Of a stretch of DNA of 64,000 nt, positions 24,067 to 52,793 are shown piece by piece. The DNA comes from Halosimplex halophilum (GTDB lineage Archaea; Halobacteriota; Halobacteria; Halobacteriales; Haloarculaceae). The notes beneath the pieces were generated by a model. It did no database searches. It saw nothing but the letters and a program-made list of their open reading frames with translations, and was not told the origin of the DNA. How positions within the stretch are numbered: position 1 is the first letter of the stretch; the number at the start of each line of letters is the position of its first letter. The position numbers and the translations under genes are program-made. Location: assembly GCF_004698125.1 (NCBI RefSeq), contig NZ_ML214298.1:1013972-1077971 (forward strand), given 5' to 3'.

Positions 24067-24141
24067 TGGGTTGGGGCGGATTTGAACCGCCGACTTCCTC
24101 CGTGTGAAGGAGGTATCATAACCGGACTAGATCACCAACCC
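24067..24141 (-). tRNA. tRNA-Val (anticodon CAC)
   Basis: On the minus strand the 75-nt sequence starts GGGTTGG and ends CCAACCC plus discriminator A, giving a perfect 7-bp acceptor stem. The anticodon arm is CCTCC-TTCACAC-GGAGG, so the anticodon is CAC and reads GTG valine codons. The T-arm contains GGTTCAAATCC. No intron and no encoded CCA are seen. The low-GC pocket lies directly on its 3' side, the side on which archaeal integrases act. Confidence 0.95.
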
Positions 24142-39529: not shown

Positions 39530-40253
39530 CGTCGAGTTCGGCCTCTACCTCCTCGCCGACGACCCCAGCCTCACCTTCGTCGCCTTCGTCGGGCTCGTCC
39601 TCCTGACGGTCATCGCCGCCCGGTTCGGCGCCTACGCCTACCTGAACATGCGCGCCACCGGCGTCGACGCCCAGCGGGTCCTCTGGGAGTACCTGCTGTA
39701 CGTCGGCCTCGTCGCCGCGCTGTACGGCGTCGTCGGCGTCCTCGAGATCGTCTCCTCGGTCCGCACCCCCTACAGGACCGGCCTCATGCTCGCCGTCGTC
39801 CTCCTGCTCGCGCTCGCCGTCCGGGAGGTCTACTTCAACGCCGCGCTCTCGACGACCGGCGCCGACCGCGTGTTCCCGGGGCGGCGCCTCGTCGAAGTCG
39901 CCTTCGTCGCCGTCGTCGCCGCCGTCGTCTTCGGGGTCGCCGTCTTCGGCCTCCGCCGGCCGCTGCTGGCGCTCCAGGGCGTCGGCGCGCTGGCCTTCGC
40001 CGGCTACGGCTTCTGGTTCGGCCGCAAGCAGACCGCCGCCGCGATGGTCCAGGGCACGATGATCGACTCGCTGCTGCGCCACCTCCTGCCGGTCCTCGCG
40101 TTCGCCACGCTCGTCCCCGCCGTCGACCTGGCTACCGTCGCCGGCCTCGACCGCGTCGTCGTCGTGCACGTCCAGGTCGTCTTCGTCATCATGACCGCCA
40201 CCGCCCTCATGACCGCCACCATCAAACTCCGACAGAACCTCGCGGGTCTGTGA
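39519..40253 (+). CDS. Multi-span membrane protein coupled to the pseudokinase gene
   Basis: A 244-residue integral membrane protein with about seven predicted spans (for example FVAFVGLVLLTVIAARF near 19-35, LLYVGLVAALYGVVGV near 59-74 and LMLAVVLLLALAV near 89-101). Short charged loops include VREVYFNAALSTTGADRVF. I do not recognise the family by name. The gene overlaps the pseudokinase gene by 11 bp, so the two proteins probably act together, for instance as a membrane sensor with a cytoplasmic adaptor. A long structured repeat begins 20 bp after its stop codon. Confidence 0.75.
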   Translation: MAGDVEFGLYLLADDPSLTFVAFVGLVLLTVIAARFGAYAYLNMRATGVDAQRVLWEYLLYVGLVAALYGVVGVLEIVSSVRTPYRTGLMLAVVLLLALAVREVYFNAALSTTGADRVFPGRRLVEVAFVAVVAAVVFGVAVFGLRRPLLALQGVGALAFAGYGFWFGRKQTAAAMVQGTMIDSLLRHLLPVLAFATLVPAVDLATVAGLDRVVVVHVQVVFVIMTATALMTATIKLRQNLAGL

Positions 40254-40273
40254 CTGCCAGTGGATTGCCGAAT

Positions 40274-40661
40274 CGGCGCGCGCTGGAGCGCGCGTTCATG
40301 CGCGCGACCGTAGCCGCGCGAGGGATGAGCACCGCACGCCGCAGGCGCGCGGAGCGCAAGAGGCTGGGGAGGCGTGAGGCCCCCTGCGGTGCTGTGCGGG
40401 GCGGTCGCGGTGCCGTGCGGTTCTGGTGGACTGAACGGGCGAGGCGCGCTCGCGTGCAGTTCAGTCGTCTGAGCGACCCGTATCCGAAGCGGCCCTTGGG
40501 CCGCGAGGATATGTCGCTCAGCGACCGCGAGCGCGCCGAGGGCTTTCATCGCTAACTGTTTCCCGCGGTTGACCCTCCAGCTAGCGGGCGCGCCGAGGGC
40601 TTTCAGCGCCTGCCGTCGCATGCAGTCGATCCGGGTCACAGCGAGCGCGTCGAGAGAACCC
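40274..40661 (-). repeat. Structured intergenic repeat, copy 1 (reverse orientation)
   Basis: Occupies most of the 481-bp gap before the NUDIX gene. Read on the minus strand it contains the 33-nt core shared exactly with copies 2 and 3 (40547 down to 40515), beginning GAAAGCCCTCGGCGCG. A 16-nt half unit of the same start lies exactly 57 nt earlier (40604-40589), and a decayed half unit a further 57 nt earlier (near 40661, about 15 of 21 matches). The core folds with downstream sequence into a foldback (40548-40432). The inner stem here is TGAGCGAC/GTCGCTCA, where copies 2 and 3 have TGAGCGGG/CCCGCTCA. A Cys/Arg-free tail of GC-rich hairpins reaches 40274. Nothing in it looks protein-coding. 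Confidence 0.85.
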
Positions 40662-40734
40662 AGCGCCGGCCAGCACCCACTCGAACCACGTCGACTCGAA
40701 AGAACGAAAGCCGAGATCCGCCACATGACACACC

Positions 40735-41244
40735 ATGGACGAGTACGCGCACGTCGTCAACGTCGACGGGGTGGTCGCGAGAGCGCGCGGCGACGGAAAT
40801 GGATCCGAGGACGGAGACGAACCCGCGGACGGGACCGGCGCACTCGACGACCGGACCACGGAGTACCTGTTCGTCGAGCGGAGCGAAGCCGAGGACCACG
40901 CGGCCGGGCTTCTGGGGCTGCCGGGCGGGAAACTCGAACCCGAACCCGGCGTCGACCACGCGATCGAGAGTACGGTCAGACGCGAGATCGCGGAGGAGGT
41001 CGGCGTCACCGTCGGCGAGGTCGCGTACGTCTGCAGCGGGACCTTCGAGACGGACACCGGCCACCAGTGTCTGAACGTCGTCACGCGCTGCGAGTACGAC
41101 GGCGGCGAGGCCCGCGTTCGCGACCCCGAGGAGGTCGCGGCGGTCCACTGGCTCACGCTGGACGAACTCCGGGCTCGCGAGGACGTGCCGGCGTTCACCG
41201 AGACGTACGTCGAGCGCGCCGCGGCGGTCCGCGGATCGGACTGA
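40735..41244 (+). CDS. NUDIX hydrolase
   Basis: Hydrolase of nucleoside-diphosphate-linked substrates, 169 residues. The Nudix box is LPGGKLEPEPGVDHAIESTV running into RREIAEEVGV. The catalytic REIAEEVGV helix is intact, while the loop between GGK and RE is about four residues longer than the minimal consensus. This is seen in some subfamilies and may alter substrate choice. The N-terminus carries an acidic insertion (GNGSEDGDEPADGTGALD). The second ATG of the local pair (40735) is used; the one ten bases upstream is in another frame. Confidence 0.88.
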   Translation: MDEYAHVVNVDGVVARARGDGNGSEDGDEPADGTGALDDRTTEYLFVERSEAEDHAAGLLGLPGGKLEPEPGVDHAIESTVRREIAEEVGVTVGEVAYVCSGTFETDTGHQCLNVVTRCEYDGGEARVRDPEEVAAVHWLTLDELRAREDVPAFTETYVERAAAVRGSD

Positions 41245-41265
41245 CTCGGCGGCCGGGCGGCCCGC

Positions 41266-41877
41266 TCACAGCCGCTCGCGGTCGACGCGGACCCGCTCGA
41301 ACTCCTCGACGGCGAGCCAGCCGCCCCACACCGCGAAGGCGGCCGCCCCGAACAGTTCCGGGATGGCGATCCCCGGCGGGAACCACGGGAACAGGAACCA
41401 CCAGGTCCACGAGACGACGTGCAGGACGCCGAGCAACACTAGCACGAGCCCGCGGAGTTCCCGGCCGGCGGCGTAGTCGCCGCCGCCCCACAGGAACACG
41501 GCGAGCGTCAGGAACAGGAAGAAGGGGACGGCGACCAGCCCGTGCAGCGGGTGCGGCAGCGGGAACACGCCCACGAACGCCATGAACAGCATGGCGAGCA
41601 GGGCGAAGATGCCGCCGGCCTTCCGGATCGGGTGGTCGGTGTCGGCGAGCACGGCGACGACGAAGCCGGCGCCGAGCGCGCCGCCGACGAGGAGGGCACC
41701 GTTGAAGATCGGCGCCGTCGGGACGCCGCGCGCGCCCAGATCCGAGAGGGCGTAGTACAGCGGCGAGAACCACGGCGCCGCGGCCATCGCGTAGACGACG
41801 CCGCCGAACGCGACGAGGACGGCCGCGAGCCCGACGGCGGGCGGGACCAGCGGACGGAGGGGGTCGTAGTCGGCCAT
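41266..41877 (-). CDS. DUF998-family membrane protein
   Basis: Integral membrane protein of 203 residues with six predicted spans, matching the DUF998 pattern: AVLVAFGGVVYAMAAAPWFS followed by PLYYALSDLGARG, then FNGALLVGGALGAGF and later HPLHGLVAVPFFLFLTLAVF. The YxLSDLG motif after the first span is the family hallmark. Function is unestablished. ATG 41877 is chosen. A TATA-like AATATAAAC lies about 52-60 bp upstream on the minus strand, so this gene may have a short leader. Confidence 0.85.
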   Translation of the reverse strand: MADYDPLRPLVPPAVGLAAVLVAFGGVVYAMAAAPWFSPLYYALSDLGARGVPTAPIFNGALLVGGALGAGFVVAVLADTDHPIRKAGGIFALLAMLFMAFVGVFPLPHPLHGLVAVPFFLFLTLAVFLWGGGDYAAGRELRGLVLVLLGVLHVVSWTWWFLFPWFPPGIAIPELFGAAAFAVWGGWLAVEEFERVRVDRERL

Positions 41878-41928
41878 ACCGCGCGCTGGGTCCGCCCCCA
41901 CGAAAAAAGACGGGGTCGACGACGTTCT

Positions 41929-41937
41929 GTTTATATT
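41929..41937. promoter_or_regulatory. Strong TATA element, usable in either direction
   Basis: GTTTATATT is the best TATA box in this interval. Read rightward it would start a transcript near 41960 that runs through repeat copy 2 and ends at the hairpin/T-run at 42488. Read leftward it could serve the DUF998 gene with a leader of about 25-30 nt. The sequence alone does not settle which. Confidence 0.45.
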
Positions 41938-42016
41938 GTGAGTCGAGTAGTTATTTCTGGTTGTTCTGGTGCGGAAGAAACGAGCACGACAGCGACCGCA
42001 GTGGACAGCAGGCGGT

Positions 42017-42373
42017 GAAAGCCCTCGGCGCGTTCGCTAGCAGTCGTATCTACCGCACCCGACGGTAAGCGCTGAAAGCCCTCGGCGCGCTCGCGGTCGC
42101 TGAGCGGGATATCCGCGCTCTCGGCACCGCCCGCGCGGATAGTGGCCCGCTCAGGCGACGCCCGGCGCGAGCGCGCCTCGCCCTTTCAGTCCGCCAGGAA
42201 CAGCACAGCACCACAGACAGCCACGAGCCTCCCCAGCCGATTCGCTCCTATCGTCGCTCATCCCTCGCGCGGCTATTTCGAGCGGCCCGCCAGGAGGCGG
42301 GCACGCTCACGGCAGAGCCGTTCGCATCGAGGCGCTCCGAAGTCGCGCCTCGCACCGCTCGACAGCGCACGCC
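42017..42373 (+). repeat. Structured intergenic repeat, copy 2
   Basis: The half unit GAAAGCCCTCGGCGCG at 42017-42032 precedes the full 33-nt core at 42074-42106 by exactly 57 nt. The foldback runs 42073-42188. Its outer stem is TGAAAG with CTTTCA, then GGCGCGCTCGC with GCGAGCGCGCC. Its inner stem is TGAGCGGG with CCCGCTCA, then TATCC with GGATA. A downstream block sharing CGAGCCTCCCCAGCCGATTC with copy 3 follows at about 42223-42242. At 42305-42358 is a module (GCTCACGGCAGAGCCGTTCG) that in copy 3 sits inside the apical loop. No protein-coding signal is seen. Confidence 0.85.
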
Positions 42374-42422
42374 GACCGCACCGCGACCGCTCACTACAAC
42401 AGCCGTCACCTGCACTGAGCAT

Positions 42423-42443
42423 CCGCGCGCCTGCGGCGCGCGG
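42423..42443. repeat. 9-bp perfect GC hairpin
   Basis: CCGCGCGCC (42423-42431) pairs with GGCGCGCGG (42435-42443) across a TGC loop. It belongs to a row of hairpins closing the intergenic region after repeat copy 2. Confidence 0.55.
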
Positions 42444-42448
42444 TTCGA

Positions 42449-42488
42449 CCGCCGGAGCGGGGCGAAGCCCCGCGGAGGCGGCCTTTTT
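42449..42488 (+). terminator. Hairpin plus T5, terminator-like, rightward
   Basis: CCGCC (42449-42453) with GGCGG (42477-42481) encloses GCGGGGC-GAA-GCCCCGC (42457-42473), followed by CC and TTTTT (42484-42488). No protein gene on the plus strand lies upstream within 1.2 kb, so if it terminates anything it is a transcript of the repeat region. Confidence 0.45.
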
Positions 42489-42502
42489 CACCCATGTTTT
42501 TG

Positions 42503-42553
42503 CCGCCCGGGTTCCCCGCAGCGCGCCTCCGGCGCGCGAGGAAACCCGGGCGG
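42503..42553. repeat. Long hairpin at the 3' end of dnaJ
   Basis: CCGCCCGGGTT (42503-42513) pairs perfectly with AACCCGGGCGG (42543-42553), enclosing GCGCGCC/GGCGCGC (42521-42537). It begins 12 bp past the dnaJ stop codon. On the minus strand a T5 run (42559-42555) lies between stop codon and hairpin, a plausible archaeal termination signal. A role as mRNA-stabilising or insulating hairpin is equally possible. Confidence 0.5.
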
Positions 42554-42564
42554 GAAAAAGATGG

Positions 42565-43740
42565 TTAGAAACTGTCTTTGATCTTCTCGAAGAAGCCCTG
42601 GCCCACGTCGACCTCCTCGCCGCCGGCCTCGGCGAAGGCTTCGAGGGCTTCCCTCTGTTCGCTGTTGAGGTCGTCGGGGGTGACGACCTGGACCTGGACG
42701 TAGAGGTCGCCGTCGCCCCGGCGGCGCAGGCGGGGCATCCCCTTGCCGGAGAGGCGGAAGGTCTCGCCGCTCTGGGTGCCGGCGGGCACGTCGAGTTCGA
42801 CGGCGCCGTCGAGCGTCGAGATCTCGATAGTGTCGCCGAAGACCGCCTGCGGGAAGGAGATGGGCTCCTGGCGGTGCAGGTCCGCGCCGTCGCGCTCGAA
42901 GTCGGGGTGATCCCGAACGGAGACTTCGATGAGGAGGTCGCCCTTGGGGCCGCCGCGCTCGCCGGGGGCGCCCTCGCGCTCCATGCGGAGGGTCTGGCCG
43001 TCCTCGATGCCGGCGGGCACCTCGACGGAGAGGGAGGCGTCCTCGCGGACGACGCCGTCGCCGCGGCAGGTCGAACAGGTCTCCTCGTAGACGGTGCCCT
43101 CGCCCTCGCAGTGGCGGCAGGTCTGCCGTTGCTGGACGCGGCCCATCGGCGTCTGCTGGGTGGTCGTGGTCTGCCCGCGGCCGTTGCACTCGGGACACTG
43201 CCGGGAGTCGGTGCCCGGCGGGTGGCCCTTCCCGTTGCAGTCCGGACAGGTGTCCGGCCGGGTGACGTTGAGCTCCTTCTCGACGCCGTGGTAGGCGTCT
43301 TCGAGGTCGATCTCCAGGGTGGTTCGCAGGTCCCGACCCTGGCGGGGGCGATTGGAGTCGCCGCGACCCCCGCCACCGCCGAAGAACGTCTCGAAGATGT
43401 CGGACATGTCGCCGAAGGGGCCCTGGCCGCCTCCGCCGCCCATGCCGCCCATACCGCCCATTCCCCCCATGCCGCCGGCGCCGGCGCCGCCGTTGTCGGT
43501 GGCACCGTGCTTGTCGGCCTCGACGTAGCGGTCGTGGCCGAGCTGGTCGTACATCTGGCGCTGTTCCTCGTCGGTGAGGACCTCCTTGGCCTTCTTGACC
43601 TTCTTGAACTTCTCCTCGGCGTCGTCCTCGTCGCTCACGTCGGGGTGGTACTCCCGGGCTTTCTCCCGGTAGGCCTGCTGGATCTCCTCCTCGCTGGCGT
43701 CCCGGGAGACCCCCAGCACCTCGTAGAAGTCCTCGCTCAT
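42565..43740 (-). CDS. dnaJ: Chaperone protein DnaJ (Hsp40)
   Basis: Co-chaperone that stimulates DnaK ATPase and delivers unfolded clients, 391 residues. The J-domain at the N-terminus has the HPD motif in YHPDVSDED. A Gly/Met-rich linker (GAGGMGGMGGMGG, about 78-105) follows. The zinc centre has four CxxCxGxG-type repeats (CPDCNGKG, CPECNGRG, CRHCEGEG, CSTCRGDG, about 155-220). The client-binding beta domains complete the type I (DnaJ-A) plan. dnaK and grpE, its usual neighbours, are not adjacent: repeat copy 2 follows and a secreted-protein gene precedes it. Confidence 0.96.
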   Translation of the reverse strand: MSEDFYEVLGVSRDASEEEIQQAYREKAREYHPDVSDEDDAEEKFKKVKKAKEVLTDEEQRQMYDQLGHDRYVEADKHGATDNGGAGAGGMGGMGGMGGMGGGGGQGPFGDMSDIFETFFGGGGGRGDSNRPRQGRDLRTTLEIDLEDAYHGVEKELNVTRPDTCPDCNGKGHPPGTDSRQCPECNGRGQTTTTQQTPMGRVQQRQTCRHCEGEGTVYEETCSTCRGDGVVREDASLSVEVPAGIEDGQTLRMEREGAPGERGGPKGDLLIEVSVRDHPDFERDGADLHRQEPISFPQAVFGDTIEISTLDGAVELDVPAGTQSGETFRLSGKGMPRLRRRGDGDLYVQVQVVTPDDLNSEQREALEAFAEAGGEEVDVGQGFFEKIKDSF

Positions 43741-43908
43741 CGCTTGTGCCGGTGTAGACGATTGAGGTACTTCAATAGAACGGGTCTGGGATCGCGGCGG
43801 CCGAGGGGCGGACGACCGCGGCCGCCGGTCCGACCCGGGCGCCCGTCGGGGTCGTCGGTCCGGACGCCCGGGCGGTCACGGGCGAGCCTGCGGGCTATCG
43901 GCGGGCGG

Positions 43909-44541
43909 TCAGCCGCCGTCGGTCGCGGTGTCGGTCGGGGTACCCGTGGCGGTGTCGGTGCCGTTGTCCCCCTCGTCGTCGGCGAGCCACCAGTCCTCGT
44001 TATCGAGCAGGTCGTCCTCCTCGTCCTCGCCGACCGGGCTGAAGTTGATCGTCGTGAGCCACCCCTCCGTGTCGAACAGCGTGAACTCGGGGTCGATCGT
44101 GAACACCTCCGGCTGGACCGTGCCGTCGTCGGCGGTGTCGCCCGCGTCGTCGACGACGTAGCCGGCCTCCTCGTCGTACTCGGGGAGCTCGGCCTCCTCG
44201 GCGACGAAGATGGTCGCCCGCTCGCCGGTCCCGAGGTAGCGGATCATCCGCGTGTTGTAGTCCGACCAGACGTTGTCGCGGACCTCCTCGACGTTCGGGA
44301 CCCACTCTATCACCGGCGACGTGACGACGAAGTCCGCTCTCGGGCGCACGCTGTCGGTGAACAGGATCGCCTTCTGGGACTCCTGCACTCCGGCGTCGTC
44401 GCCGTCGTCGTCGTCCTGTGCCGCCGCGACGCCCGCGCCGGACGCGGCGGCGGTGCCCGCGGCCGCGAGCGCGCTCTTTTTCATCACTGATCGGCGCGAT
44501 TCCTCCGGGGTGTCGAACGGCAGGACGGAGTCGTCTGTCAT
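43909..44541 (-). CDS. Exported acidic protein, unknown function
   Basis: A 210-residue protein with a likely Tat signal (SRRSVMKKSALAAAGTAAAS) and a cleavage region near VAAAQDD. The mature part is very acidic, with a beta-rich core (KAILFTDSVRPRADFVV, MIRYLGTGERATIFVAEEAE, FTLFDTEGWLTTINFSP) and a Thr/Asp tail ending in TATDGG. I do not recognise a named family. No lipobox Cys or membrane anchor is visible, so it may be released or associate with the S-layer. The start lies about 240 bp from the cupin gene, and that gap holds no gene. Confidence 0.65.
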   Translation of the reverse strand: MTDDSVLPFDTPEESRRSVMKKSALAAAGTAAASGAGVAAAQDDDDGDDAGVQESQKAILFTDSVRPRADFVVTSPVIEWVPNVEEVRDNVWSDYNTRMIRYLGTGERATIFVAEEAELPEYDEEAGYVVDDAGDTADDGTVQPEVFTIDPEFTLFDTEGWLTTINFSPVGEDEEDDLLDNEDWWLADDEGDNGTDTATGTPTDTATDGG

Positions 44542-44784
44542 CGTGTGTCCCCGTGCGTCGGTTGCGGAGCCACGCTGAACAGTCCGGAGCCTGCCATCGA
44601 AACGGACACGCCGCCGTCGCCGGGGCGCTCACGCGCCGACGACAGGCGGAGTGGGGAGAGCGTCCACGCCCGCCGTTCGCGGCCGCGTTGCGGCCGCTAC
44701 CGCGCGATAGTCGACTCCTCTCGCCGTCCGCCCGGCTTGCAAGTTCCGCGGCGGCGGTTCGTCCCGCGGTCGACAGCTCGCCGC

Positions 44785-45402
44785 TCAGTCGCGGAACGGC
44801 GGCGAGTCGAACGCCGCGCCGCAGCCGTCGCACGCCGCGACGACCGCGCCGCCGTCGTCGAGCGCGAGCGTCAGCGCGTCCCTCCCGCAGTCCGGGCACG
44901 GCGCCGGGACGCGCTCGGCGCCGCAGGCGGGACACCGGAACGACAGCGCGTCGCCCGCGGCGTCGAGGGCGAAGTCAGCCTCGCCGCAGTCGGGACAGCG
45001 GACGGGCACGCGAACGTCGGTGGTCTCCCTCGGCGCGCCGATAGCGAGCGCGACCAGGTCGTCGTCGCCGCGGTTGTCCCCCGACTGGTACTCGCCGGGG
45101 GCGAACCGGACCGCCTCGCCCGCGGGGACGGTGACTACCCGGCCGCTCCGGGCGGTATTCGACCCGCCCGGGTCGTCGGGATCCCGACCGGGGAGCGTCT
45201 CGAACGTCGCGGTGCCGTCGAGGACGACGAACACCTCCTCCTGGTCGGCGTGGGTGTGGAGCCCGCTCGGGAACCCCTCGCCGGGCGGGATCCGGTAGCG
45301 GTTGATCGCGACGCCGTCGGTGGCCAGCGGGTCGGAGAGCCCGCGGCGGTCGACGCCGGCGGTCGGTCCGTCGGTCGGCTCGTCGAACGCGACGCGTTCC
45401 AT
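44785..45402 (-). CDS. Cupin domain fused to two zinc ribbons
   Basis: A 205-residue cytoplasmic protein. Residues about 25-120 form a cupin: PSGLHTHADQEEVFVVLDGT supplies the metal-binding His/Glu set and FAPGEYQSGDNRGDD the second strand block. The C-terminal third has two zinc ribbons, RCPDCGEADF paired with FRCPACGAE and PCPDCGRDA paired with ACDGCGAAF. The fusion of a small-molecule sensor/enzyme fold with zinc ribbons suggests a regulator or a protein that docks on nucleic acid, but no function is known. The ATG at 45402 (MERVAFDEPT) is used. Confidence 0.75.
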   Translation of the reverse strand: MERVAFDEPTDGPTAGVDRRGLSDPLATDGVAINRYRIPPGEGFPSGLHTHADQEEVFVVLDGTATFETLPGRDPDDPGGSNTARSGRVVTVPAGEAVRFAPGEYQSGDNRGDDDLVALAIGAPRETTDVRVPVRCPDCGEADFALDAAGDALSFRCPACGAERVPAPCPDCGRDALTLALDDGGAVVAACDGCGAAFDSPPFRD

Positions 45403-45470
45403 GTCGGCCACTCGCGGCCGAGCGAGAAATCTCTGTGGGCGCCAGGGGGCGACCCGACCGCCGACCGCGC

Positions 45471-46070
45471 TCACACACCGAGCCACTCGTCATTGCGGAC
45501 CTCGTAGCCGTTCGACCGACAGAACTTCGCTGCCCGCCGCCGCACGTCCCGGGACCCCGGGAGTCTCTCTTTCTCGCGGATGCGCTCGACGATCCAGTCG
45601 GCGACGACCGGGATCCCCTCGTCGTCGTCGACGGCGTCGATGGCTCTGAGCTCCCGGAAGGTCCGCTCGTACCCCTCGTACTGGGAACTCCCGAACTCGA
45701 CGCCCCGGAGTTCGTCGGCCGCCTCGACGATCCGTCGCATCGCCGCGGCGACCGTCGGGCGCTGGACGCGCGCGCGGACCGCCTCGGGCGAGTCGTACGC
45801 CTCGCGCTCGGACCGCGGGAGCAGCTCCGCCAGGTCGTGGGTCTCCCCCTCGGACTCGACGGTGTGGTAGCCGACCGCCTCGACGAGCTCCAGCCCCGTC
45901 GCCGGGAACGTCACCGCGTCGAGCTCGGTTTCGAGGTCCGCCAGTTCGCGCTCGTCGACCGGCGGTTCGGTCTCGTCGCCGCGTTCGAGCTCCTCCAGCA
46001 TCGCCCGCGTTCGCTGTCGGTTCGCCTCGTCCCGGGCCTGCTTGTCTCTCCCCGCTCTGTCGTCTGGCAT
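45471..46070 (-). CDS. Conserved haloarchaeal acidic protein (DUF5789-like)
   Basis: A 199-residue soluble, mostly helical protein. It starts MPDDRAGRDKQARDEANRQR (a charged helix), continues with FPATGLELVEAVGYHTVESE and VQRPTVAAAMRRIVEAADEL, and ends with RRRAAKFCRSNGYEVRNDEW. This block order is one I recall from a widespread haloarchaeal family, probably DUF5789, though I am not certain of the number. No enzymatic motif is seen. The strong conservation pattern suggests a housekeeping role. Confidence 0.65.
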   Translation of the reverse strand: MPDDRAGRDKQARDEANRQRTRAMLEELERGDETEPPVDERELADLETELDAVTFPATGLELVEAVGYHTVESEGETHDLAELLPRSEREAYDSPEAVRARVQRPTVAAAMRRIVEAADELRGVEFGSSQYEGYERTFRELRAIDAVDDDEGIPVVADWIVERIREKERLPGSRDVRRRAAKFCRSNGYEVRNDEWLGV

Positions 46071-46231
46071 CCCGTGAATTTGGAGTCGGGCGCGGATAAC
46101 CCTGTGGTCGGCACGGTCCGGCCGGCGTCGCCCCGCGGTCGAACCGTTCGGTCGACGCCCCCACGTGTCCGTTCGGTTTCAAAAACGGGCTTCAGCGAAC
46201 GCCTTTACCGACGGCGACCGAGATGTGTGGT

Positions 46232-47995
46232 ATGGCAACGGAGTCCACGGACGGGCCGGACGGCTACGAGGCGGCGGCCGACCTCGACGCGCTCCGCGAG
46301 GACGGGCGGGCGGTGACGACGGTCGGCGGTCACAGCATCGCGCTCTTCCACCACGAAGGGGAGGTGTACGGGGTGGACAACCGCTGTCCGCACATGGGGT
46401 TTCCCCTGTCGAAGGGGACCGTCGAGGACGGGCTGCTGACGTGTCACTGGCACCACGCGCGGTTCGAGCTGTCCTGCGGGGACACGTTCGACATCTGGGC
46501 CGACGACGTGCAGACGTTCCCGACGGCGGTCCGCGAGGGCACGGTGTACGTCGACCCCGACCCCGAGACGGACGTGGCACCGGAGGTCCACTGGCGCAAC
46601 CGACTCGTCGACGGCATGGCCGAGAACCTCTCGCTCGTGCTCGCCAAGAGCGCGATCCACCTCGACGGCCTCGGCGAGGGGTTCGCGACCCCGCTGGAGA
46701 CGGCGGTCGACTTCGGGACGAAGTACCGCGCCGACGGCTGGGGGCGCGGGCTGACCACGCTGGGCGCGATGGCGAACCTCTACGACGAGGTCGACCACGA
46801 CGAGAAACAGCGGGCGATGTTCGTCGGCGTCCGCGAGGTGGCGAGCAACTGCGCGGGCGAGCCCCCCAGGTTCGACCAGTACGCGCTGGACAACGAGGAC
46901 CTCTCGAAGGACCGCCTGAAGTCGTGGTTCCGCGAGACCTGCGAGGTCCGCGACGCGGACGGCGCGGAGCGCTGCCTGCGGGCGGCGACCGCCACGCTCC
47001 CGCCCGAGGACCTCGCCGAGATCCTCGTCGCCGCCGCGACCGACCACCTCTACATGAACAGCAGCCACACGGTCGACTTCATCAACAAAGCGTTCGAGAC
47101 GCTCGACCACGTCGGCTGGGAGAAGGCGCCGGACGTGCTGGCGGCGACGGTCGACACGATCACCGACGGCTCCCGCGCCGAGGAGACGAGTTCCTGGCGC
47201 CAGCCGGTCGACGTGGCCGAACTCTGTTTCGACGCCGACGGCGACATCGCCGAGCTCTCGGCGGCGGGCGCCGGGGAGTCCTGGGAGCGGCCCGACGACT
47301 TCGTCGACCGGCTGCTCGGCGACGATCCCCACGCCATCGACGAGGCGCTCCGGGACGCGGTCCGGAACGGTGCGACGACCGAGCAACTGGCCCACGCGGT
47401 CGCCGTGGCGGCGCTCCGGCGGGTCGCGCACTTCGCGACCAGCAACGAGTTCGGCGACTGGAACACGGTCCATCACACCTTCTCGTTCGCCAACGCGGTC
47501 GAGCGGCTCGCGGGCCGCACCGACGCCGACGACCTGTATCGCGCGTGCTGGCAGGGGGCCATGTCGGTCTACCTGGACCGCTTCCTCAACCAGCCGAAGG
47601 CGCCGCTCCCCGAGGTCGGCGCCGGCGAGGGCGACGACCCCGCGGAGTTGCGCGAGCGGCTGCTGGAGACCTTCGACGAGCAGGGTCGCGTCGACGAGGC
47701 CGGGCGGATCGTCTCCCGCCACTTCGACGCCGGCGGCGATCCCGACCGGCTGAAGCGGACGATGGCCGAGGGGCTCCTGCGGGAGGACGCCGGCTTCCAC
47801 ACCCTCCAGAACGTCGAGGGCGGGTTCGCGCAGTTCGAGAGCGCCGAGAGCGACCGCGAGCGGCGGCTGGCGCTGATCGCCCCCGCGAGGTACATGGCCG
47901 CGCACTTCCCGACCCGACGGGAGGCCGAGCAGACGTTCACCATCGCCGAGCGGCTGTATCGGGGCGAGAACATCCACGAGGCGGCGGACGACTGA
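46232..47995 (+). CDS. Rieske [2Fe-2S] protein with long helical C-terminal domain
   Basis: A 587-residue soluble protein. Residues about 15-110 form a Rieske ferredoxin domain whose cluster ligands are CPHMGF and CHWHHARF. The remaining 470 residues are all-helical with several conserved His/Asn patches (SHTVDFINKAFETLDHVGW, NTVHHTFSFANAVERLAG). They lack the usual catalytic domain of aromatic-ring dioxygenases (no 2-His-1-carboxylate motif recognised). An electron-transfer or oxidoreductase role is inferred. GCCTTTACC about 25-30 bp before ATG 46232 supports that start over the ATG at 46223. Confidence 0.82.
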   Translation: MATESTDGPDGYEAAADLDALREDGRAVTTVGGHSIALFHHEGEVYGVDNRCPHMGFPLSKGTVEDGLLTCHWHHARFELSCGDTFDIWADDVQTFPTAVREGTVYVDPDPETDVAPEVHWRNRLVDGMAENLSLVLAKSAIHLDGLGEGFATPLETAVDFGTKYRADGWGRGLTTLGAMANLYDEVDHDEKQRAMFVGVREVASNCAGEPPRFDQYALDNEDLSKDRLKSWFRETCEVRDADGAERCLRAATATLPPEDLAEILVAAATDHLYMNSSHTVDFINKAFETLDHVGWEKAPDVLAATVDTITDGSRAEETSSWRQPVDVAELCFDADGDIAELSAAGAGESWERPDDFVDRLLGDDPHAIDEALRDAVRNGATTEQLAHAVAVAALRRVAHFATSNEFGDWNTVHHTFSFANAVERLAGRTDADDLYRACWQGAMSVYLDRFLNQPKAPLPEVGAGEGDDPAELRERLLETFDEQGRVDEAGRIVSRHFDAGGDPDRLKRTMAEGLLREDAGFHTLQNVEGGFAQFESAESDRERRLALIAPARYMAAHFPTRREAEQTFTIAERLYRGENIHEAADD

Positions 47996-48162
47996 CGACG
48001 GCGATCGACCCGCGCCCCGCCGGTCGGTTCCGGCCTTGAGATCGCCTGCAGTAGCCTGATTTCGGCCACGGGCCCAGGTGTGTGTGTGAGTTTACACGCC
48101 CGCAGGTCCGCGCGCGGACGGCCGGCCGACGACAGGGCAGCGAGTCCGCGGCGAGCACGCGG

Positions 48163-48771
48163 ATGAGCTTCCTCACGGTACTCCCGCTCGCGGTCGTGAT
48201 GGTCGCCGGACCGCAGTTCCTCAGCGCCGTCTTCCTGGCGACGAGTCGCGACTGGCGGCGCAACTCCGCGCTGTTCGTCTCCGGGGCGGCGGTCTCCATC
48301 TCGGCGGTGGTCGCGCTGACCTACCTCCTCGGCGGCGTGTCAGCGGTCGGGGGCGAGGGGTCGAACGGCCCGCTCTCGACGGTGGTGGTCGTGCTGATCG
48401 TCGCGGCGATGATATCCACGTTCCTCGGGCGCGCGGAGTCCGAGCCGCCGAAGTGGATGGGGAAACTGGAGCGGGCCTCCCCGCGCTTTTCCTTCCGGCT
48501 CGGCTTTCTCCTGCTCGGCGTGTTCCCGACCGACATCGTCACGTCGGTCGCCGTCGGGTCCTATCTCGCCGCGAACGACCTCCCGCTGGTCGACGCCGCC
48601 CCGTTCGTCGCGCTTACGCTGCTGTTGCTCGCGCTTCCCTCCCTCGCGGTGGCGCTGCTCGGCGCTCGCGCCGAGACGTTGCTCCCCCGCGTCCGCGACT
48701 GGATGCACGACAGCGCCTGGGTCGTCAACGAGGTCGTCCTCGCGTTCTTCCTCGTGTTGGTGCTCACCTGA
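48163..48771 (+). CDS. GAP-family membrane protein (Sap/sulfolipid-1-addressing type)
   Basis: Membrane protein of 202 residues with six predicted spans, starting LTVLPLAVVMVAGPQFLSAV and including FRLGFLLLGVFPTDIVTSVAVG. The layout resembles the GAP (LysE-superfamily-like) proteins known from mycobacteria as Sap. Those are linked to export of lipids or small molecules; the function here is inferred only. The ATG at 48163 sits directly before the first span. A GTG 27 codons upstream would add an Arg-rich segment and is less likely. Confidence 0.65.
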   Translation: MSFLTVLPLAVVMVAGPQFLSAVFLATSRDWRRNSALFVSGAAVSISAVVALTYLLGGVSAVGGEGSNGPLSTVVVVLIVAAMISTFLGRAESEPPKWMGKLERASPRFSFRLGFLLLGVFPTDIVTSVAVGSYLAANDLPLVDAAPFVALTLLLLALPSLAVALLGARAETLLPRVRDWMHDSAWVVNEVVLAFFLVLVLT

Positions 48772-48879
48772 CCGTCGATAGCTGCGCTGTTCCCGCCTCC
48801 TCGCGAGGAGCGGTCGTCCACGAGCGCCGAGTACCTGAGTCGCGGCGGGGCGGTCCATCGGGGAGCGGACGACCGGGTC

Positions 48880-50523
48880 TCAACCGCGCCGCGTGGCCGC
48901 GAAGAGACCGGCCAGGAGCGCGACCGAGGCGGCCGCGACGCCGAATCCGGGACCGTCGCCGGACGTGGCCGCCGTCGCGGTGCGGCCGGCGGTCGCCGTT
49001 CCGGTGGTGTCCGCGGTGGTCGGCGTCGCAGTCGACGTGCCAGCCTTCGTGCCCGCCCCCGTCCGCGTGGCCGTCTTCGGAGTCGTCGGCGGCTCGGGCG
49101 GCGCGGTCGCCGCCGGGGTTGCCGTCTGTGTCGCGGTGGGTCTCGCTGTCGCTGTCCCGGTGGCGGTCGGCTCGGCCGTCGCGGTCGGCGTGGGCGTCGG
49201 AGTGACCGTGGTCACGCCGGCGCCGTCGACCCCGAACTCGACGGAGAGTTCGCCGTACTCCGTCTTCGGCACGTCGGCGGTCGTCGTGAACTCGGTGTCC
49301 GGCGGGCGGCCGTACTCGCCGTCGCCGTCGGCGTCCCAGAGGAGTTCCAGGTCCACCGATCCGCCCGGTGATCCGTCGAGCCCCTCGAACGCGACGGTCT
49401 GCTCGCTTCGCCCCTCCGGGACGACCGCCTCGCGGCTGTAGTACTCGCCTCCGCTCCTGAGGTCGACGACGAACAGCGCCCCGTCGGGGACGCGGATCGA
49501 CGCGTTCACGCGCAGCGTCCACGAGTCCGCGCCCGACTCGACGGCCGTCGCCGCGAGGTCCGACCAGCGCGGCTCCGGCCCGACGACGACGCGGCGCTCC
49601 CAGACCGTCCTGTTCCCGTTCGTCACCCGGAGGGTGAACCGCTCGCGGTCGGCCGTCGAGAGGCCGGTCAGCCACGCGTCGAACTCCGACCGCGAGCGCT
49701 CGGGGTCGGCGGCCGCGGAGGCGTTCGCGGTCGTGGTCACGGTGTCGTCGGCCAGCACCGTCCCGTTCGACCCGACCGCCGCGACCTCGACGGTCCGCCC
49801 GGGCAGGAGGTTCGTGTACCCCGACAGTATCGCCTCGTCGGCGCCCGCGTCGATCCGGGCCGGCCCCCGCCCGCTCGTCCGGAGGCCCGCCGTCGGCGAG
49901 TCGACGGTCGCGTCCGGGCCGACGAAGGCGAAGTTGTCTTCGAGCGGCGGCCCCTCCGGGCGTTCGAGCGTCACCTCGAAGTCGTCCCAGTCGGGGAACG
50001 ACGGGAACCGCTCGTCGCTGTCCCGTTCGGTCACCACGATGTCGCTCGTGTCGACGACCGCGTACGTCGTCGCGGTCCGGCGGTCCCGGACGACGCGCGT
50101 CTCGCTCCGTTCGAGCGCGATCTCGTAGGGCCGGCGGTTCGGTCCCACGAGCGCCCGGACCGTCAGGTTCGTCCGCGACTCCTCCAGCGCGGCGAAGAAC
50201 CGCTCGGTCGCGGTCGCGCCGTCGGCGGCCGCGACCGACTCGTTCAGCGCCTCGGACCGGATCCGGACCACGAGCGTATCGCCGTAGACGACGGTGTCGT
50301 CGTAGCCGGGTTCGGTGAGCGTCCCGTTCGATCGCAGCGCGCGAACGTCGCCCGCGTCGGCGATCCGGTCGTCGACGGACCCGTTCGCGGCGAGCACTGT
50401 GAGGTTCGCGCCGGACTGGCCGCCGTCGGCCGCGACACCGCCGGCGACGGCGGCGCCCGCCAGTCCCACGAGCACCAGCGCGGCGAGCGCTGTCCGGTTC
50501 GCGGTCGGTGAGCGGAGGGCCAT
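48880..50523 (-). CDS. PGF-CTERM surface glycoprotein
   Basis: Exported 547-residue cell-surface protein. A signal peptide (ALAALVLVGLAGAAVAGGVA) is followed by beta-rich domains with many N-glycosylation sequons (NLT, NGS, NGT, NES). A Thr/Pro/Ala-rich stalk covers about 435-515. The C-terminus DGPGFGVAAASVALLAGLFA followed by TRRG is a textbook PGF-CTERM, recognised and processed by archaeosortase A for lipid attachment. Function of the outer domains is unknown; BGTF/DUF7827-like surface domains are the nearest comparison I can offer, from memory only. Confidence 0.82.
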   Translation of the reverse strand: MALRSPTANRTALAALVLVGLAGAAVAGGVAADGGQSGANLTVLAANGSVDDRIADAGDVRALRSNGTLTEPGYDDTVVYGDTLVVRIRSEALNESVAAADGATATERFFAALEESRTNLTVRALVGPNRRPYEIALERSETRVVRDRRTATTYAVVDTSDIVVTERDSDERFPSFPDWDDFEVTLERPEGPPLEDNFAFVGPDATVDSPTAGLRTSGRGPARIDAGADEAILSGYTNLLPGRTVEVAAVGSNGTVLADDTVTTTANASAAADPERSRSEFDAWLTGLSTADRERFTLRVTNGNRTVWERRVVVGPEPRWSDLAATAVESGADSWTLRVNASIRVPDGALFVVDLRSGGEYYSREAVVPEGRSEQTVAFEGLDGSPGGSVDLELLWDADGDGEYGRPPDTEFTTTADVPKTEYGELSVEFGVDGAGVTTVTPTPTPTATAEPTATGTATARPTATQTATPAATAPPEPPTTPKTATRTGAGTKAGTSTATPTTADTTGTATAGRTATAATSGDGPGFGVAAASVALLAGLFAATRRG

Positions 50524-50621
50524 ATCGCGGCGTGTCGGCCGAGCGAAATAAATGCCTTCTGTCCGGCGAGCGCCCCGCCGACCCCCGACAGCTAACTACC
50601 CGGCGCGAGTGGTTGTCGGCA

Positions 50622-51146
50622 ATGACGAGGGGTCCCGGACTGGTCGGCGACGAGCGCGGCGGCGTCGAGCGGTGGGTCGTCTGGCTGGTCGCCGTCGCGG
50701 TCGTCGCCGGGCTCGTCGGCTCGGTCGTCTACCTCGGCGACGAACTCCGCCGCGACAGCCCCGGCGCCGACTTCTCCGTGGCGTTCGACGCCGAAGCCGG
50801 ATCGGTGACCGTCGAACACGCCGGCGGCGATTCGATCTCCGATCGGACGACCGAGCGGCTGTCCGTCGTCGTCCTCGACAGTTCGGCCGGGACGAGCGCG
50901 GAAGTGGTGTGGGTCGGCGACTCGCCCGGCGCGACCAAACGGGGGGTGGGGTATCCGGTCGCTCCCGGCGACTCGCTGACGGTCGACGACCCCAGCGTGG
51001 ACGCCGACGGCGACGGGAACTACCTGGACGCCGAGCGGAGCGTGGGGTTCTACCTGGAGTCCGGGGACAGCGTTCGGGTGGTGTGGACCGGCTCGATGCG
51101 CGGGACGAGACAGTCGGTGACGCTCGCGAACGCAACGCTGGAGTGA
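50622..51146 (+). CDS. Pilin-like single-span protein, paralogue of 2698-3060
   Basis: A 174-residue protein with a short charged N-terminus (MTRGPGLVGDERGGVER), one hydrophobic segment (VVWLVAVAVVAGLVGSVVYL, about 19-38) and an extracellular beta domain. The core VTVEHAGG and the near-terminal VRVVWTGSMRG repeat the layout of the protein at 2698-3060 (VRITHAGG, VRIVWSPGRG), with about 50 extra residues between. No clear prepilin peptidase site is visible. Divergent from the PGF-CTERM gene 98 bp away; repeat copy 3 begins about 50 bp past the stop. Confidence 0.62.
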   Translation: MTRGPGLVGDERGGVERWVVWLVAVAVVAGLVGSVVYLGDELRRDSPGADFSVAFDAEAGSVTVEHAGGDSISDRTTERLSVVVLDSSAGTSAEVVWVGDSPGATKRGVGYPVAPGDSLTVDDPSVDADGDGNYLDAERSVGFYLESGDSVRVVWTGSMRGTRQSVTLANATLE

Positions 51147-51197
51147 GCGGGTTCGTCTTCGGTGTCTCTGAGAGGACTGCACTCTGCGGTGAGCGCT

Positions 51198-51573
51198 GAA
51201 AGCCCTCGGCGCGCTCGCTCTGAATCGGATCGACCGCACTCGACAGCAGGCGTTGAAAGCCCTCGGCGCGCTCGCGGTCGCTGAGCGGGATATCCGCGCT
51301 CTCCGCACCGCCCGCTCACGGCACAGCCGTTCGCTTCGAGGCGCTGCGCGCCTCGCACCGCGCGGATAGTGCCCGCTCAGACGACTGGATAAACGCGAGC
51401 GCGCCTCGCCCTTTCAGTCCACCAGGGACCGCGACCGCACGGTGTGGCACCGCGCCCGCCCCGCACAGCACCGCAACGGGCCACGAGCCTCCCCAGCCGA
51501 TTCGCGACACGCGAGTCGCGAATCCCTCGCACGGCTCGGTCGCGCGCACGAGAGCGCGCGACAGCGCGCGCCG
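51198..51573 (+). repeat. Structured intergenic repeat, copy 3
   Basis: Fills the gap between two convergent genes. The half unit GAAAGCCCTCGGCGCG (51198-51213) precedes the identical 33-nt core (51255-51287) by exactly 57 nt. The foldback is longer (51254-51416) because its apical loop holds an extra module (GCTCACGGCACAGCCGTTCG, about 51314-51333, plus GCGCGCCTCGCACCGC). In copy 2 that module lies downstream. Outer and inner stems match copy 2. The 3' part, CGAGCCTCCCCAGCCGATTC then GAATCCCTCGCACGGC, and the final GCGCGCGCC correspond to the end of copy 1. Confidence 0.85.
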
Positions 51574-51599
51574 TTCGGAAGGTCGTCGTTCTGGGCCGT

Positions 51600-52793
51600 T
51601 CAGACGCCCTTCCGCATCAGGTGGCTGCGGAGCACGTCGTTCTCCTTGGTGCCGGCGACGGGGTTGACGAGCACGACCACGTCGTCGCTCCCGAGGTGGC
51701 CGCCGTCGGCGAGTTCTTGCGCGGCGGCGGCGCCGACGCCGCCGGTCGCGCTGGCCTCGATACCCTCGGCGTTGAGCTGGACCGCCGCCTCGAGCGCGTC
51801 GTCGTCGTCCGCGCCGACCGCCCAGCCGCCGGTGTCGCGGACGGCCTCCAGGGCGAGCGCGCCGCCGGCGGGGTCCGGGACCTCCAGCGAGCCGACGAGC
51901 GTGTCCGGGCGCTCCCACGCCTCGGTGTCGTCGTCGCCCGCGTCGTCGGCGGCGACGACCGGCGCGCAGTTCTCGGGCTGTGCGACGTGCAGGGCGGGTG
52001 CGTCGTCGACGAGCCCCGCGGCCTGCAACTGCTCGGCGGCGAGGTGGCTGCCGACGACGCCGAGGCCGTGACCGGTTGGGTGGACGACGGCGTCGGGGAC
52101 CTCCCAGTCGAGTTGCTCGACGACCTCGAACAGGAGCGTCTTGGCGCCCTCGTGGCGGTAGGGGGTGTCGAACGGCGCCAGCGAGTGCCAGTCGGTGTTG
52201 TCGTCGCTCATCGCGCCCTCGAAGGCGTCGACGGCGTCCGGGTAGCGGCCCTCGACGACGCTCATGTCGCCGCCGTGGACGTTGGTCATCGCCTTGGCGA
52301 CGAACGTCGAGCGCGTCGGGACGAACGCCTCCGACTTCAGTCCCGCGCGGGCGGCGTAGGCGGCGGCGCTCTGGCCCGCGTCGCCCGTGGTCGGGAGCGC
52401 GACTTTCTCCGCGCCGTGGTCGCGGGCGGCGGTCACGGCGAGGGCTGTCCCGCGGTCGGCGGTCGTCCCGGTCGGGTTCGCGCCCTCGTCTTTGACGTAG
52501 ACGGCGCCGACGCCGAGTGCCTCGGCGAACTCCGGCGCGGGGATCAGCGGCGTCGTCCCCTCGTCGAGCGTCACGAGCGAGTCGGCGGGGAACGGCAGGA
52601 GGTCGGAAAAGCGAGCGATGCCGTCGAACCGCGCCGCGCCGAGCGATTCGCGGGTCACCTCGGCGGCGTCGGCGTCGTAGCTCGCGCGGAGGACGCCGCC
52701 GCAGTCGGGACAGCGCCGCGGGGCCGCCGCGGGGTCGTGGGTCGCCGCGCAGTCGGCGCAGACGAGGCCGTCGAGCGACGTGGTCGTGTCCAT
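51600..52793 (-). CDS. Threonine synthase-like protein lacking the PLP lysine
   Basis: A 397-residue member of the fold-type II PLP family most similar to threonine synthase. An N-terminal zinc ribbon (CADC and CPDC, about 12-31) precedes the catalytic domain. Where ThrC has NPTGSFKDRG with the Schiff-base lysine, this protein reads NPTGTTADRG: Ala112 replaces Lys. The phosphate-binding glycine loop is kept in altered form (TTGDAGQSAAAY). The protein probably cannot carry out normal PLP chemistry, and may be a regulatory or divergent paralogue. A true thrC should exist elsewhere in the genome. Its 3' end abuts repeat copy 3. Confidence 0.82.
   Translation of the reverse strand: MDTTTSLDGLVCADCAATHDPAAAPRRCPDCGGVLRASYDADAAEVTRESLGAARFDGIARFSDLLPFPADSLVTLDEGTTPLIPAPEFAEALGVGAVYVKDEGANPTGTTADRGTALAVTAARDHGAEKVALPTTGDAGQSAAAYAARAGLKSEAFVPTRSTFVAKAMTNVHGGDMSVVEGRYPDAVDAFEGAMSDDNTDWHSLAPFDTPYRHEGAKTLLFEVVEQLDWEVPDAVVHPTGHGLGVVGSHLAAEQLQAAGLVDDAPALHVAQPENCAPVVAADDAGDDDTEAWERPDTLVGSLEVPDPAGGALALEAVRDTGGWAVGADDDDALEAAVQLNAEGIEASATGGVGAAAAQELADGGHLGSDDVVVLVNPVAGTKENDVLRSHLMRKGV

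What the first reader, a model, noticed from the sequence alone, without database searches (positions are those of the whole stretch)
42017..42188. Intergenic foldback repeat with compensatory base changes and a fixed 57-nt period, three copies in 11 kb
Seen directly: copies at 40274-40604 (reverse), 42017-42373 and 51198-51573 share an identical 33-nt core (40547-40515, 42074-42106, 51255-51287). In all three, the 16-nt half unit GAAAGCCCTCGGCGCG starts exactly 57 nt before the core start. The core pairs with downstream sequence: outer stem TGAAAG/CTTTCA, then GGCGCGCTCGC/GCGAGCGCGCC, and inner stem TGAGCGGG/CCCGCTCA in copies 2 and 3. Copy 1 instead has TGAGCGAC/GTCGCTCA, two compensatory pair changes that keep the stem. 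The next pairing TATCC/GGATA is kept in all. One outer pair in copy 1 is lost (CGTTCA). Covariation points to selection on the folded form. Inference: a non-coding RNA family, a non-autonomous foldback element (MITE-like), or a nucleoid/recombination site. No coding signal or transposase is associated.
Basis: partly seen in the sequence, partly recalled or inferred. Interest (0 to 1): 0.78.

Follow-up and report, generated by a model that had tools for sequence, protein, structure and literature searches.

The report
Haloarchaeal foldback DNA repeat family
The three matching sequences are members of an apparently undescribed family of folded repeats, present in up to about 100 copies per genome across salt-loving archaea, whose pairing behaves like a DNA hairpin and not like an RNA.

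Summary
The three copies belong to a dispersed family with at least 84 copies in this Halosimplex genome, 15-96 in every Halosimplex examined, and copies in 102 of 391 Halobacteria genomes (40 of 86 genera). No match was found outside Halobacteriales. The stems are preserved: 25 of 33 pairs change on both sides, and all 5 covarying pairs that pass a tree-aware null lie in the structure. The 57-nt register is a Halosimplex habit (27 of 47 own copies). Other genera repeat the same left half-unit at about 54, 55 or 75 nt. The finding covers only the 5' half of a ~350-bp composite, always in the order left half-units, foldback A, module B.

The RNA reading is disfavoured. Stems are ~1% wobble with no G.U excess over A.C, whereas haloarchaeal SRP RNA shows 370 G.U to 29 A.C. 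Copies at orthologous loci are no more alike than random paralogues, so content turns over. I conclude this is an old, non-autonomous, SMR/MITE-like foldback DNA element whose fold is kept at DNA level. The mobiliser is unknown; Y1 transposase is not associated (p = 0.71). Transposition, target duplication and transcription were not shown. New variant of a known kind.

The parts
40274..40402 (-). Copy 1, module B (conserved CCTCCCCAGCC / CATCCCTCGCGCGG boxes plus terminal GCGCGCGCC hairpin)
   Evidence: Same module follows foldback A in fixed order in all Halosimplex copies mapped
40428..40548 (-). Copy 1, foldback A (core stem-loop; stem variant TGAGCGAC/GTCGCTCA, apical stem TCGCGGCC..GGCCGC)
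   Evidence: CM R1 127.9 bits
40549..40605 (-). Copy 1, left half-unit of 57 nt
40606..40662 (-). Copy 1, second, degenerate 57-nt left half-unit (TGGGTTCTCTCGACGCGCTCGCT...)
   Evidence: same register; resemblance judged by eye
41941..42015 (+). Copy 2, upstream leader shared by several copies (GAGTCGAGTAGTTATTTCTGGTTGTTCTGGTG...), preceded by TTTATATT at 41930
   Evidence: Similar leader in L045, L055, L065, L067, L070; promoter role not shown
42016..42072 (+). Copy 2, left half-unit of 57 nt
42073..42192 (+). Copy 2, foldback A
   Evidence: CM R1 128.7 bits; orthologous element in G004 and G005, absent in G001, G002, G003, G006
42193..42217 (+). Copy 2, RCCAGG box and A/C-rich linker
   Evidence: Conserved in position in the Halosimplex copies listed
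42218..42373 (+). Copy 2, module B, carrying a nested double-hairpin cassette at about 42309-42360
42482..42560 (+). Optional tail T (CCTTTTTCACCCATGTTTTT - hairpin - AAAAAGATGG); a separate repeat that also occurs without the element
51197..51253 (+). Copy 3, left half-unit of 57 nt
51254..51420 (+). Copy 3, foldback A with a nested double-hairpin cassette in the apex (51315-51360)
   Evidence: CM R1 124.5 bits; element present at the orthologous locus in G001, G003, G004, G006, remnant only in G005
51421..51573 (+). Copy 3, RCCAGG box, A/C-rich linker and module B

Best explanation
This is an old, non-autonomous foldback DNA element family of the order Halobacteriales. It is small, intergenic and non-coding, and is built around a ~110-125-nt stem-loop with the ends NGAAAGCCC...GCCCTTTCAGTCCNCC. 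Shown: wide dispersal, high copy number, presence/absence between species at orthologous loci, a conserved stem with invariant internal loops, Watson-Crick pairing without the wobble signature of RNA, and extensive turnover of content. Inferred: (1) the hairpin is recognised as single-stranded or cruciform DNA by an unidentified host- or IS-encoded recombinase that copies or moves it; (2) dispersed copies exchange sequence by gene conversion or replacement, so a locus keeps an element but not its sequence; (3) replication template switching between the arms helps keep them perfectly complementary; (4) tandem left half-units arise by repeated duplication of the left arm plus its upstream 33-54 nt, the 57-nt period being the Halosimplex version. 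No step of mobilisation was observed.
For: Copy number: 84 in this genome, 15-96 in all 8 Halosimplex. Range: 102 of 391 Halobacteria genomes and 40 of 86 genera, with candidates capped at 9 per genome; phylum-wide 13 of 295, every listed match in Halobacteriales; copies on plasmids of Halorussus salilacus (10 places), Halovenus salina and Haloarcula sinaiiensis. Presence/absence: H. aquaticum element absent at the same junction in G003 and G002; H. pelagicum element absent in H. aquaticum; window copies 2 and 3 shared by some species and missing in others; in a 32-species genus most species examined have a short gap or other sequence where G342 has two head-to-head foldbacks bounded by AGCCAGAAAGCCCC...GGGGCTTTCTGGCT. 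Structure: 93.8% of cells paired versus 81.9% shuffled and 33-41% when slid, 25 of 33 pairs changed on both sides; 5 significant covarying pairs, all in the structure; unpaired A43, G90, G94 at 0.97-1.00. DNA-like pairing: G.T versus A.C 3:9, 11:6, 7:21 against 370:29 in SRP RNA; one-side to both-side changes 15:130 against 154:246 in SRP. Turnover: orthologous copies rank 19-107 of 107 in similarity; nearest neighbour in the same genome 53% versus 28% expected. Left-unit periods 57, 54, 55, 75.
Against: No target-site duplication, excision product or identical recent copies with different flanks were found; species are too diverged (80-94% in genes) to read exact junctions. No mobilising enzyme identified. 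In the G005 'absence' at locus 3 a remnant suggests deletion, so some absences are losses. Gene-orientation bias (35 antisense to 13 sense in tandem contexts; p = 0.002) and the better RNA folding of the minus strand (134 of 143) hint that transcripts through the element may matter. The wobble comparison rests on one RNA family as control.
Confidence: 0.57

Rival explanations
1. Host-maintained DNA structure: the cruciform or hairpin is a site for a nucleoid, topology, replication-fork or recombination protein of the host, like gyrase/IHF sites in bacterial BIMEs. Copies spread by gene conversion and are kept for function.
For: Conserved internal loops, persistence at orthologous loci over the age of the genus, composite order never broken in the Halosimplex copies mapped, intergenic location.
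Against: About three quarters of sampled Halobacteria genomes had no detected copy, numbers vary 15-96 within one genus, no recurrent neighbour gene, no orientation domains along the H. pelagicum chromosome.
Confidence: 0.2
2. Structured non-coding RNA family (trans-acting RNA or 3' UTR element) in many copies.
For: Strong covariation; minus strand folds 5-7 kcal/mol better in 134 of 143 copies; antisense-to-gene excess puts that strand in transcripts; leader with TTTATATT in copy 2.
Against: No wobble signature compared with SRP RNA; no Rfam match over 40000-52000 apart from two below-threshold hits outside the element cores; copy number and patchy distribution unlike a housekeeping RNA; no consistent promoter or terminator around copies in other genera (by eye).
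Confidence: 0.12
3. Neutral palindromes: the apparent compensation is produced by replication template switching between hairpin arms, with no selection on the fold.
For: Near absence of one-sided intermediates and of wobble pairs; template switching is documented to create and maintain hairpins with multibase compensatory changes (PMC8794818).
Against: Mismatched internal loops (A opposite G-N-G; the CCC/CCC loop) inside the perfect stems are invariant across genera and would be erased by arm homogenisation; absolute sequence blocks (GAAAGCCC, GCCCTTTCAGTCC) are conserved across families.
Confidence: 0.11

Closest known systems
Small mobile repeats (SMR-A/SMR-B) of Haloquadratum walsbyi (PMC3119063)
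   Same: Short, non-coding, inverted terminal repeats unrelated to known transposons, no known transposase, tens to >100 copies, found in haloarchaea; some nest inside other palindromic elements
   Different: SMRs are ~80-110 bp, commonly >95% identical within a type; here copies are a diverged, order-wide population with composite A+B structure, tandem left half-units and DNA-level covariation. Sequence homology to HqIRS42/43/55/40/41 was not tested
REP/BIME/REPIN elements mobilised by RAYT (TnpAREP) in bacteria (PMC3116915, PMC6006769)
   Same: High-copy intergenic imperfect palindromes, inverted doublets (head-to-head pairs in G342), long-lived sequence populations inside genomes
   Different: Stem-loop ~120 nt, not 20-40 nt; no RAYT: only the IS200 subclass of Y1 proteins is reported in Archaea (PMC6006769) and Y1_Tnp presence is not associated with the element
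PATEs and IS605-type elements of haloarchaea (PMC3119063)
   Same: Palindrome-rich, transposase-free haloarchaeal elements targeted by smaller nested elements
   Different: PATEs lack terminal inverted repeats and are related to IS605 ends; here TIR-like ends exist, no tnpA/tnpB ends were recognised, and Y1 is not associated
MITEs
   Same: Non-autonomous, short, TIR-like ends, intergenic
   Different: No parent transposon with matching ends was found, no target-site duplication was shown, and the whole length, not only the ends, is conserved

Membership tests
MITE | Terminal inverted repeats | tested here: met
   GAAAGCCC...CTTTC ends; AGCCAGAAAGCCCC...GGGGCTTTCTGGCT in genus g3
MITE | TIRs shared with an autonomous transposon | tested here: inconclusive
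   No ORF between arms in the longest copies (up to 272 nt between ends); no genome-wide search for a transposon with these ends was made
MITE | Target-site duplication at the insertion | tested here: inconclusive
   Presence/absence junctions found but flanks too diverged to read
Haloquadratum SMR | Inverted terminal repeats unrelated to known transposons, no transposase gene, multi-copy | tested here: inconclusive
   No coding region, many copies; unrelatedness to all known transposon ends not checked against ISfinder
Haloquadratum SMR | Sequence homology to HqIRS40/41/42/43/55 | not tested
REPIN/RAYT | Associated RAYT (TnpAREP) gene | tested here: not met
   Y1_Tnp with/without element: 68 of 102 versus 199 of 289, Fisher p 0.71; 8 of 25 element-rich genomes have no Y1_Tnp; RAYT subclasses not seen in Archaea (PMC6006769)
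REPIN/RAYT | Palindromes in inverted doublets, intergenic, high copy | tested here: met
   Head-to-head pairs in G342/G304 loci and several genera; single in Halosimplex
PATE / IS605 | No TIR, near-terminal palindromes homologous to IS605 ends | tested here: not met
   Inverted ends present; the only Y1_Tnp locus in the own genome has no foldback ends within 1.5 kb
Structured ncRNA family | Covarying secondary structure | tested here: met
Structured ncRNA family | Strand-specific wobble (G.U tolerated, A.C not) | tested here: not met
   3:9, 11:6, 7:21 versus 370:29 for SRP RNA
Structured ncRNA family | Discrete transcript | not testable with these tools
   No expression data held
Rfam families | Match above gathering score | tested here: not met
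   Only two below-threshold hits in 40000-52000, neither in a core

The most novel reading that the evidence does not exclude
A dedicated, so far unrecognised haloarchaeal DNA-hairpin recombination or maintenance system acts on these foldbacks order-wide. Its enzyme recognises the A/GNG internal loop and GAAAGCCC ends, duplicates left half-units in a genus-specific register, swaps hairpin cassettes and keeps elements in place while replacing their sequence.
Probability: 0.2. Interest if true: 0.8.

Novelty: new variant of a known kind. Interest (0 to 1): 0.55.

Why it matters
An order-wide family reaching ~100 copies per genome has no Rfam match and none in the papers searched, and it occupies intergenic DNA that is usually left unannotated. 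It is also a worked example in which covariation, normally taken as proof of RNA structure, comes with the pairing statistics of DNA. The wobble-symmetry test used here against SRP RNA can separate the two in other genomes. If a mobiliser exists it would be a new kind of archaeal foldback recombinase; if not, the family shows how gene conversion and template switching could keep a palindrome population alive.

Tried and rejected
Known RNA family: none above threshold. tRNA-like gene: only a tRNA-Val at 24067-24141, unrelated. Virus-borne element: no phage record and no viral contig matched. IS200/RAYT mobilisation: no association. Association with a particular gene: the only recurrent neighbours across the diverse loci are two same-locus pairs and one weak paralogue match. 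Replication-strand bias: none in the H. pelagicum genome (runs test on the 67 listed copies). Published sequence: searches for GAAAGCCCTCGGC, CCCTTTCAGTCC and others found only unrelated papers. Reading locus-level compensation as in-place point evolution: dropped, because orthologous copies are no more alike than paralogues. Homogenisation per genome (concerted evolution): only weakly supported; within-species identity is not consistently above between-species. RNAalifold on module B failed to give a structure because of hypervariable hairpin cassettes. Loci were found by an exact core pattern and are biased to consensus-like copies.

Full report
OBSERVATION. The three cores are identical over 33 nt and the half unit sits exactly 57 nt before each. 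The stems and the TGAGCGGG/CCCGCTCA versus TGAGCGAC/GTCGCTCA change are there. Copy 2 as DNA folds better than 100 of 100 shuffles (z -2.9).

A LARGE FAMILY. The window lies in a Halosimplex-type genome (4.47 Mb, 7 contigs; named relatives). The half unit occurs 151 times with up to 2 mismatches, against 7 for the reversed control. A covariance model of 40 copies (A1, R1) finds 84 copies in this genome and 15-96 in each of eight Halosimplex genomes. In 391 Halobacteria genomes it finds matches in 102, covering 40 of 86 genera in several families, although only nine candidates per genome were scored. A phylum-wide draw gives 13 of 295, and every listed match is in Halobacteriales. Four haloarchaeal plasmids carry it; no phage record or viral contig does.

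ANATOMY. In Halosimplex the unit is a composite in constant order: zero to four left half-units, foldback A, RCCAGG plus an A/C-rich linker, then module B; sometimes a separate tail T follows. A half unit is the 22-nt left arm plus ~35 nt. Exactly 57 nt separates the nearest unit from the core in 27 of 47 own copies; 6 lie at 52-56 and 14 show none; 30 of 60 copies from other Halosimplex are at 57. In other genera the same kind of unit is repeated with periods of 54, 55, 57 or 75 nt. So the period is a property of local tandem duplication of the left end, not a universal constant. In genus g3 the foldback pairs head-to-head with a second type and the pair is bounded by AGCCAGAAAGCCCC...GGGGCTTTCTGGCT.

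STRUCTURE IS CONSERVED. In 40 diverse matches (A2), 93.8% of cells are paired against 81.9% after shuffling and 33-41% after sliding; 25 of 33 pairs have changes on both sides. With a null that permutes substitutions along a tree, five column pairs are significant and all five are in the structure. The unpaired A and the G-N-G opposite it inside the stem are 0.97-1.00 conserved. A caution: A2 was aligned by the model, which favours its own structure.

DNA, NOT RNA. In a functional RNA, G.U pairs are tolerated and A.C are not. As a control I took SRP RNA from 29 Haloarculaceae genomes (70% GC): G.U 370, A.C 29, and the true strand folds better in 29 of 29. In the element stems G.T to A.C is 3:9 (own), 11:6 (diverse) and 7:21 (other Halosimplex), about 1% of cells. 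One-sided to two-sided changes are 15:130, against 154:246 in SRP. This fits pairing kept at the level of DNA, by selection on a DNA hairpin and/or by template switching between arms, a mechanism documented for hairpins (PMC8794818). Pure neutral template switching is hard to square with the invariant mismatched loops. The minus strand does fold 5-7 kcal/mol better as RNA in 134 of 143 copies, and elements lie antisense to tandem genes more often than sense (35 to 13, p = 0.002). These remain unexplained and keep the RNA rival alive.

HISTORY. At orthologous loci the element is often shared. Copy 3's locus is occupied in G001, G003, G004 and G006 but only a remnant is left in G005. Copy 2's locus is occupied in G004 and G005 and empty in G001, G002, G003 and G006. 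Other junctions are occupied in one species and closed in others. Yet orthologous copies are no more similar than random paralogues (ranks 19-107 of 107), while own copies are about as similar to each other as to those of other species (0.886 versus 0.870 in the core). Content therefore turns over faster than position: gene conversion, replacement, or re-insertion at the same spot. I cannot separate these with species this diverged.

MOBILISER. None was identified. The own genome has one Y1_Tnp gene with no foldback ends near it. Across 391 genomes Y1_Tnp and the element are independent (68/34/199/90, p = 0.71) and 8 of 25 element-rich genomes have no Y1_Tnp. RAYT subclasses are not reported in Archaea (PMC6006769). 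No gene recurs beside the element across genera.

VERDICT. It works like a non-autonomous foldback element (SMR/MITE/REPIN-like), but membership in REPIN/RAYT and PATE/IS605 fails on tested features, and membership in SMR or MITE is open. It is a new family and a new variant of a known kind. Mobility itself is inferred from dispersal and presence/absence; no transposition event, target duplication or transcript was demonstrated.

Noticed in passing
L052, L053, L078, L047, L054, L064 and others; window 42309-42360 and 51315-51360: Nested double-hairpin modules (~45-55 nt; hairpin - GAGCC or GGCCC - hairpin - GAC) sit at a few fixed sites inside the element, 16 in 14 of 47 copies. Stem sequences differ but the plan is the same; they resemble SMR-type insertions into palindromes.
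   Followed up: partly
Module B loops, e.g. window 42232-42262 and 51490-51525: The hairpin loops of module B hold interchangeable cassettes drawn from a small set (GATTCGCGACACGCGAGTCGCGAATC, GATTGCGCTCC..GGTGCTCATC, and others), as if swapped between copies.
   Followed up: partly
window 42482-42560; L211, L218, L222, L226, L227: A tail repeat CCTTTTTCACCCATGTTTTT-hairpin-AAAAAGATGG, possibly terminator-like, occurs both with and without the foldback at orthologous loci.
   Followed up: no
L200 1607-1770, L236, L184, L188: A second foldback type with the same ends but a GACGCAAGCAC interior is common in genus g3 and pairs head-to-head with type A around a GGTTGG-containing centre.
   Followed up: partly
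L137, L165, L176 downstream of the right end: The right end is followed by ~30-nt tandem repeats (GTGGNTTGGTCNGCCGAGCGTTTGCC-like) in Halorussus and LT46, mirroring the left half-unit arrays.
   Followed up: no
Halosimplex copies, neighbouring genes: In tandem gene contexts the element is antisense to the genes 35 times and sense 13 times (p = 0.002), from a crude gene caller.
   Followed up: partly
L218 9640-9900 (G005): A direct repeat of the 3' end of a gene (GTGAGCGTCGGCGGCGGCGGCGCGGTGATGGCG... three times) where H. pelagicum carries a foldback element.
   Followed up: no
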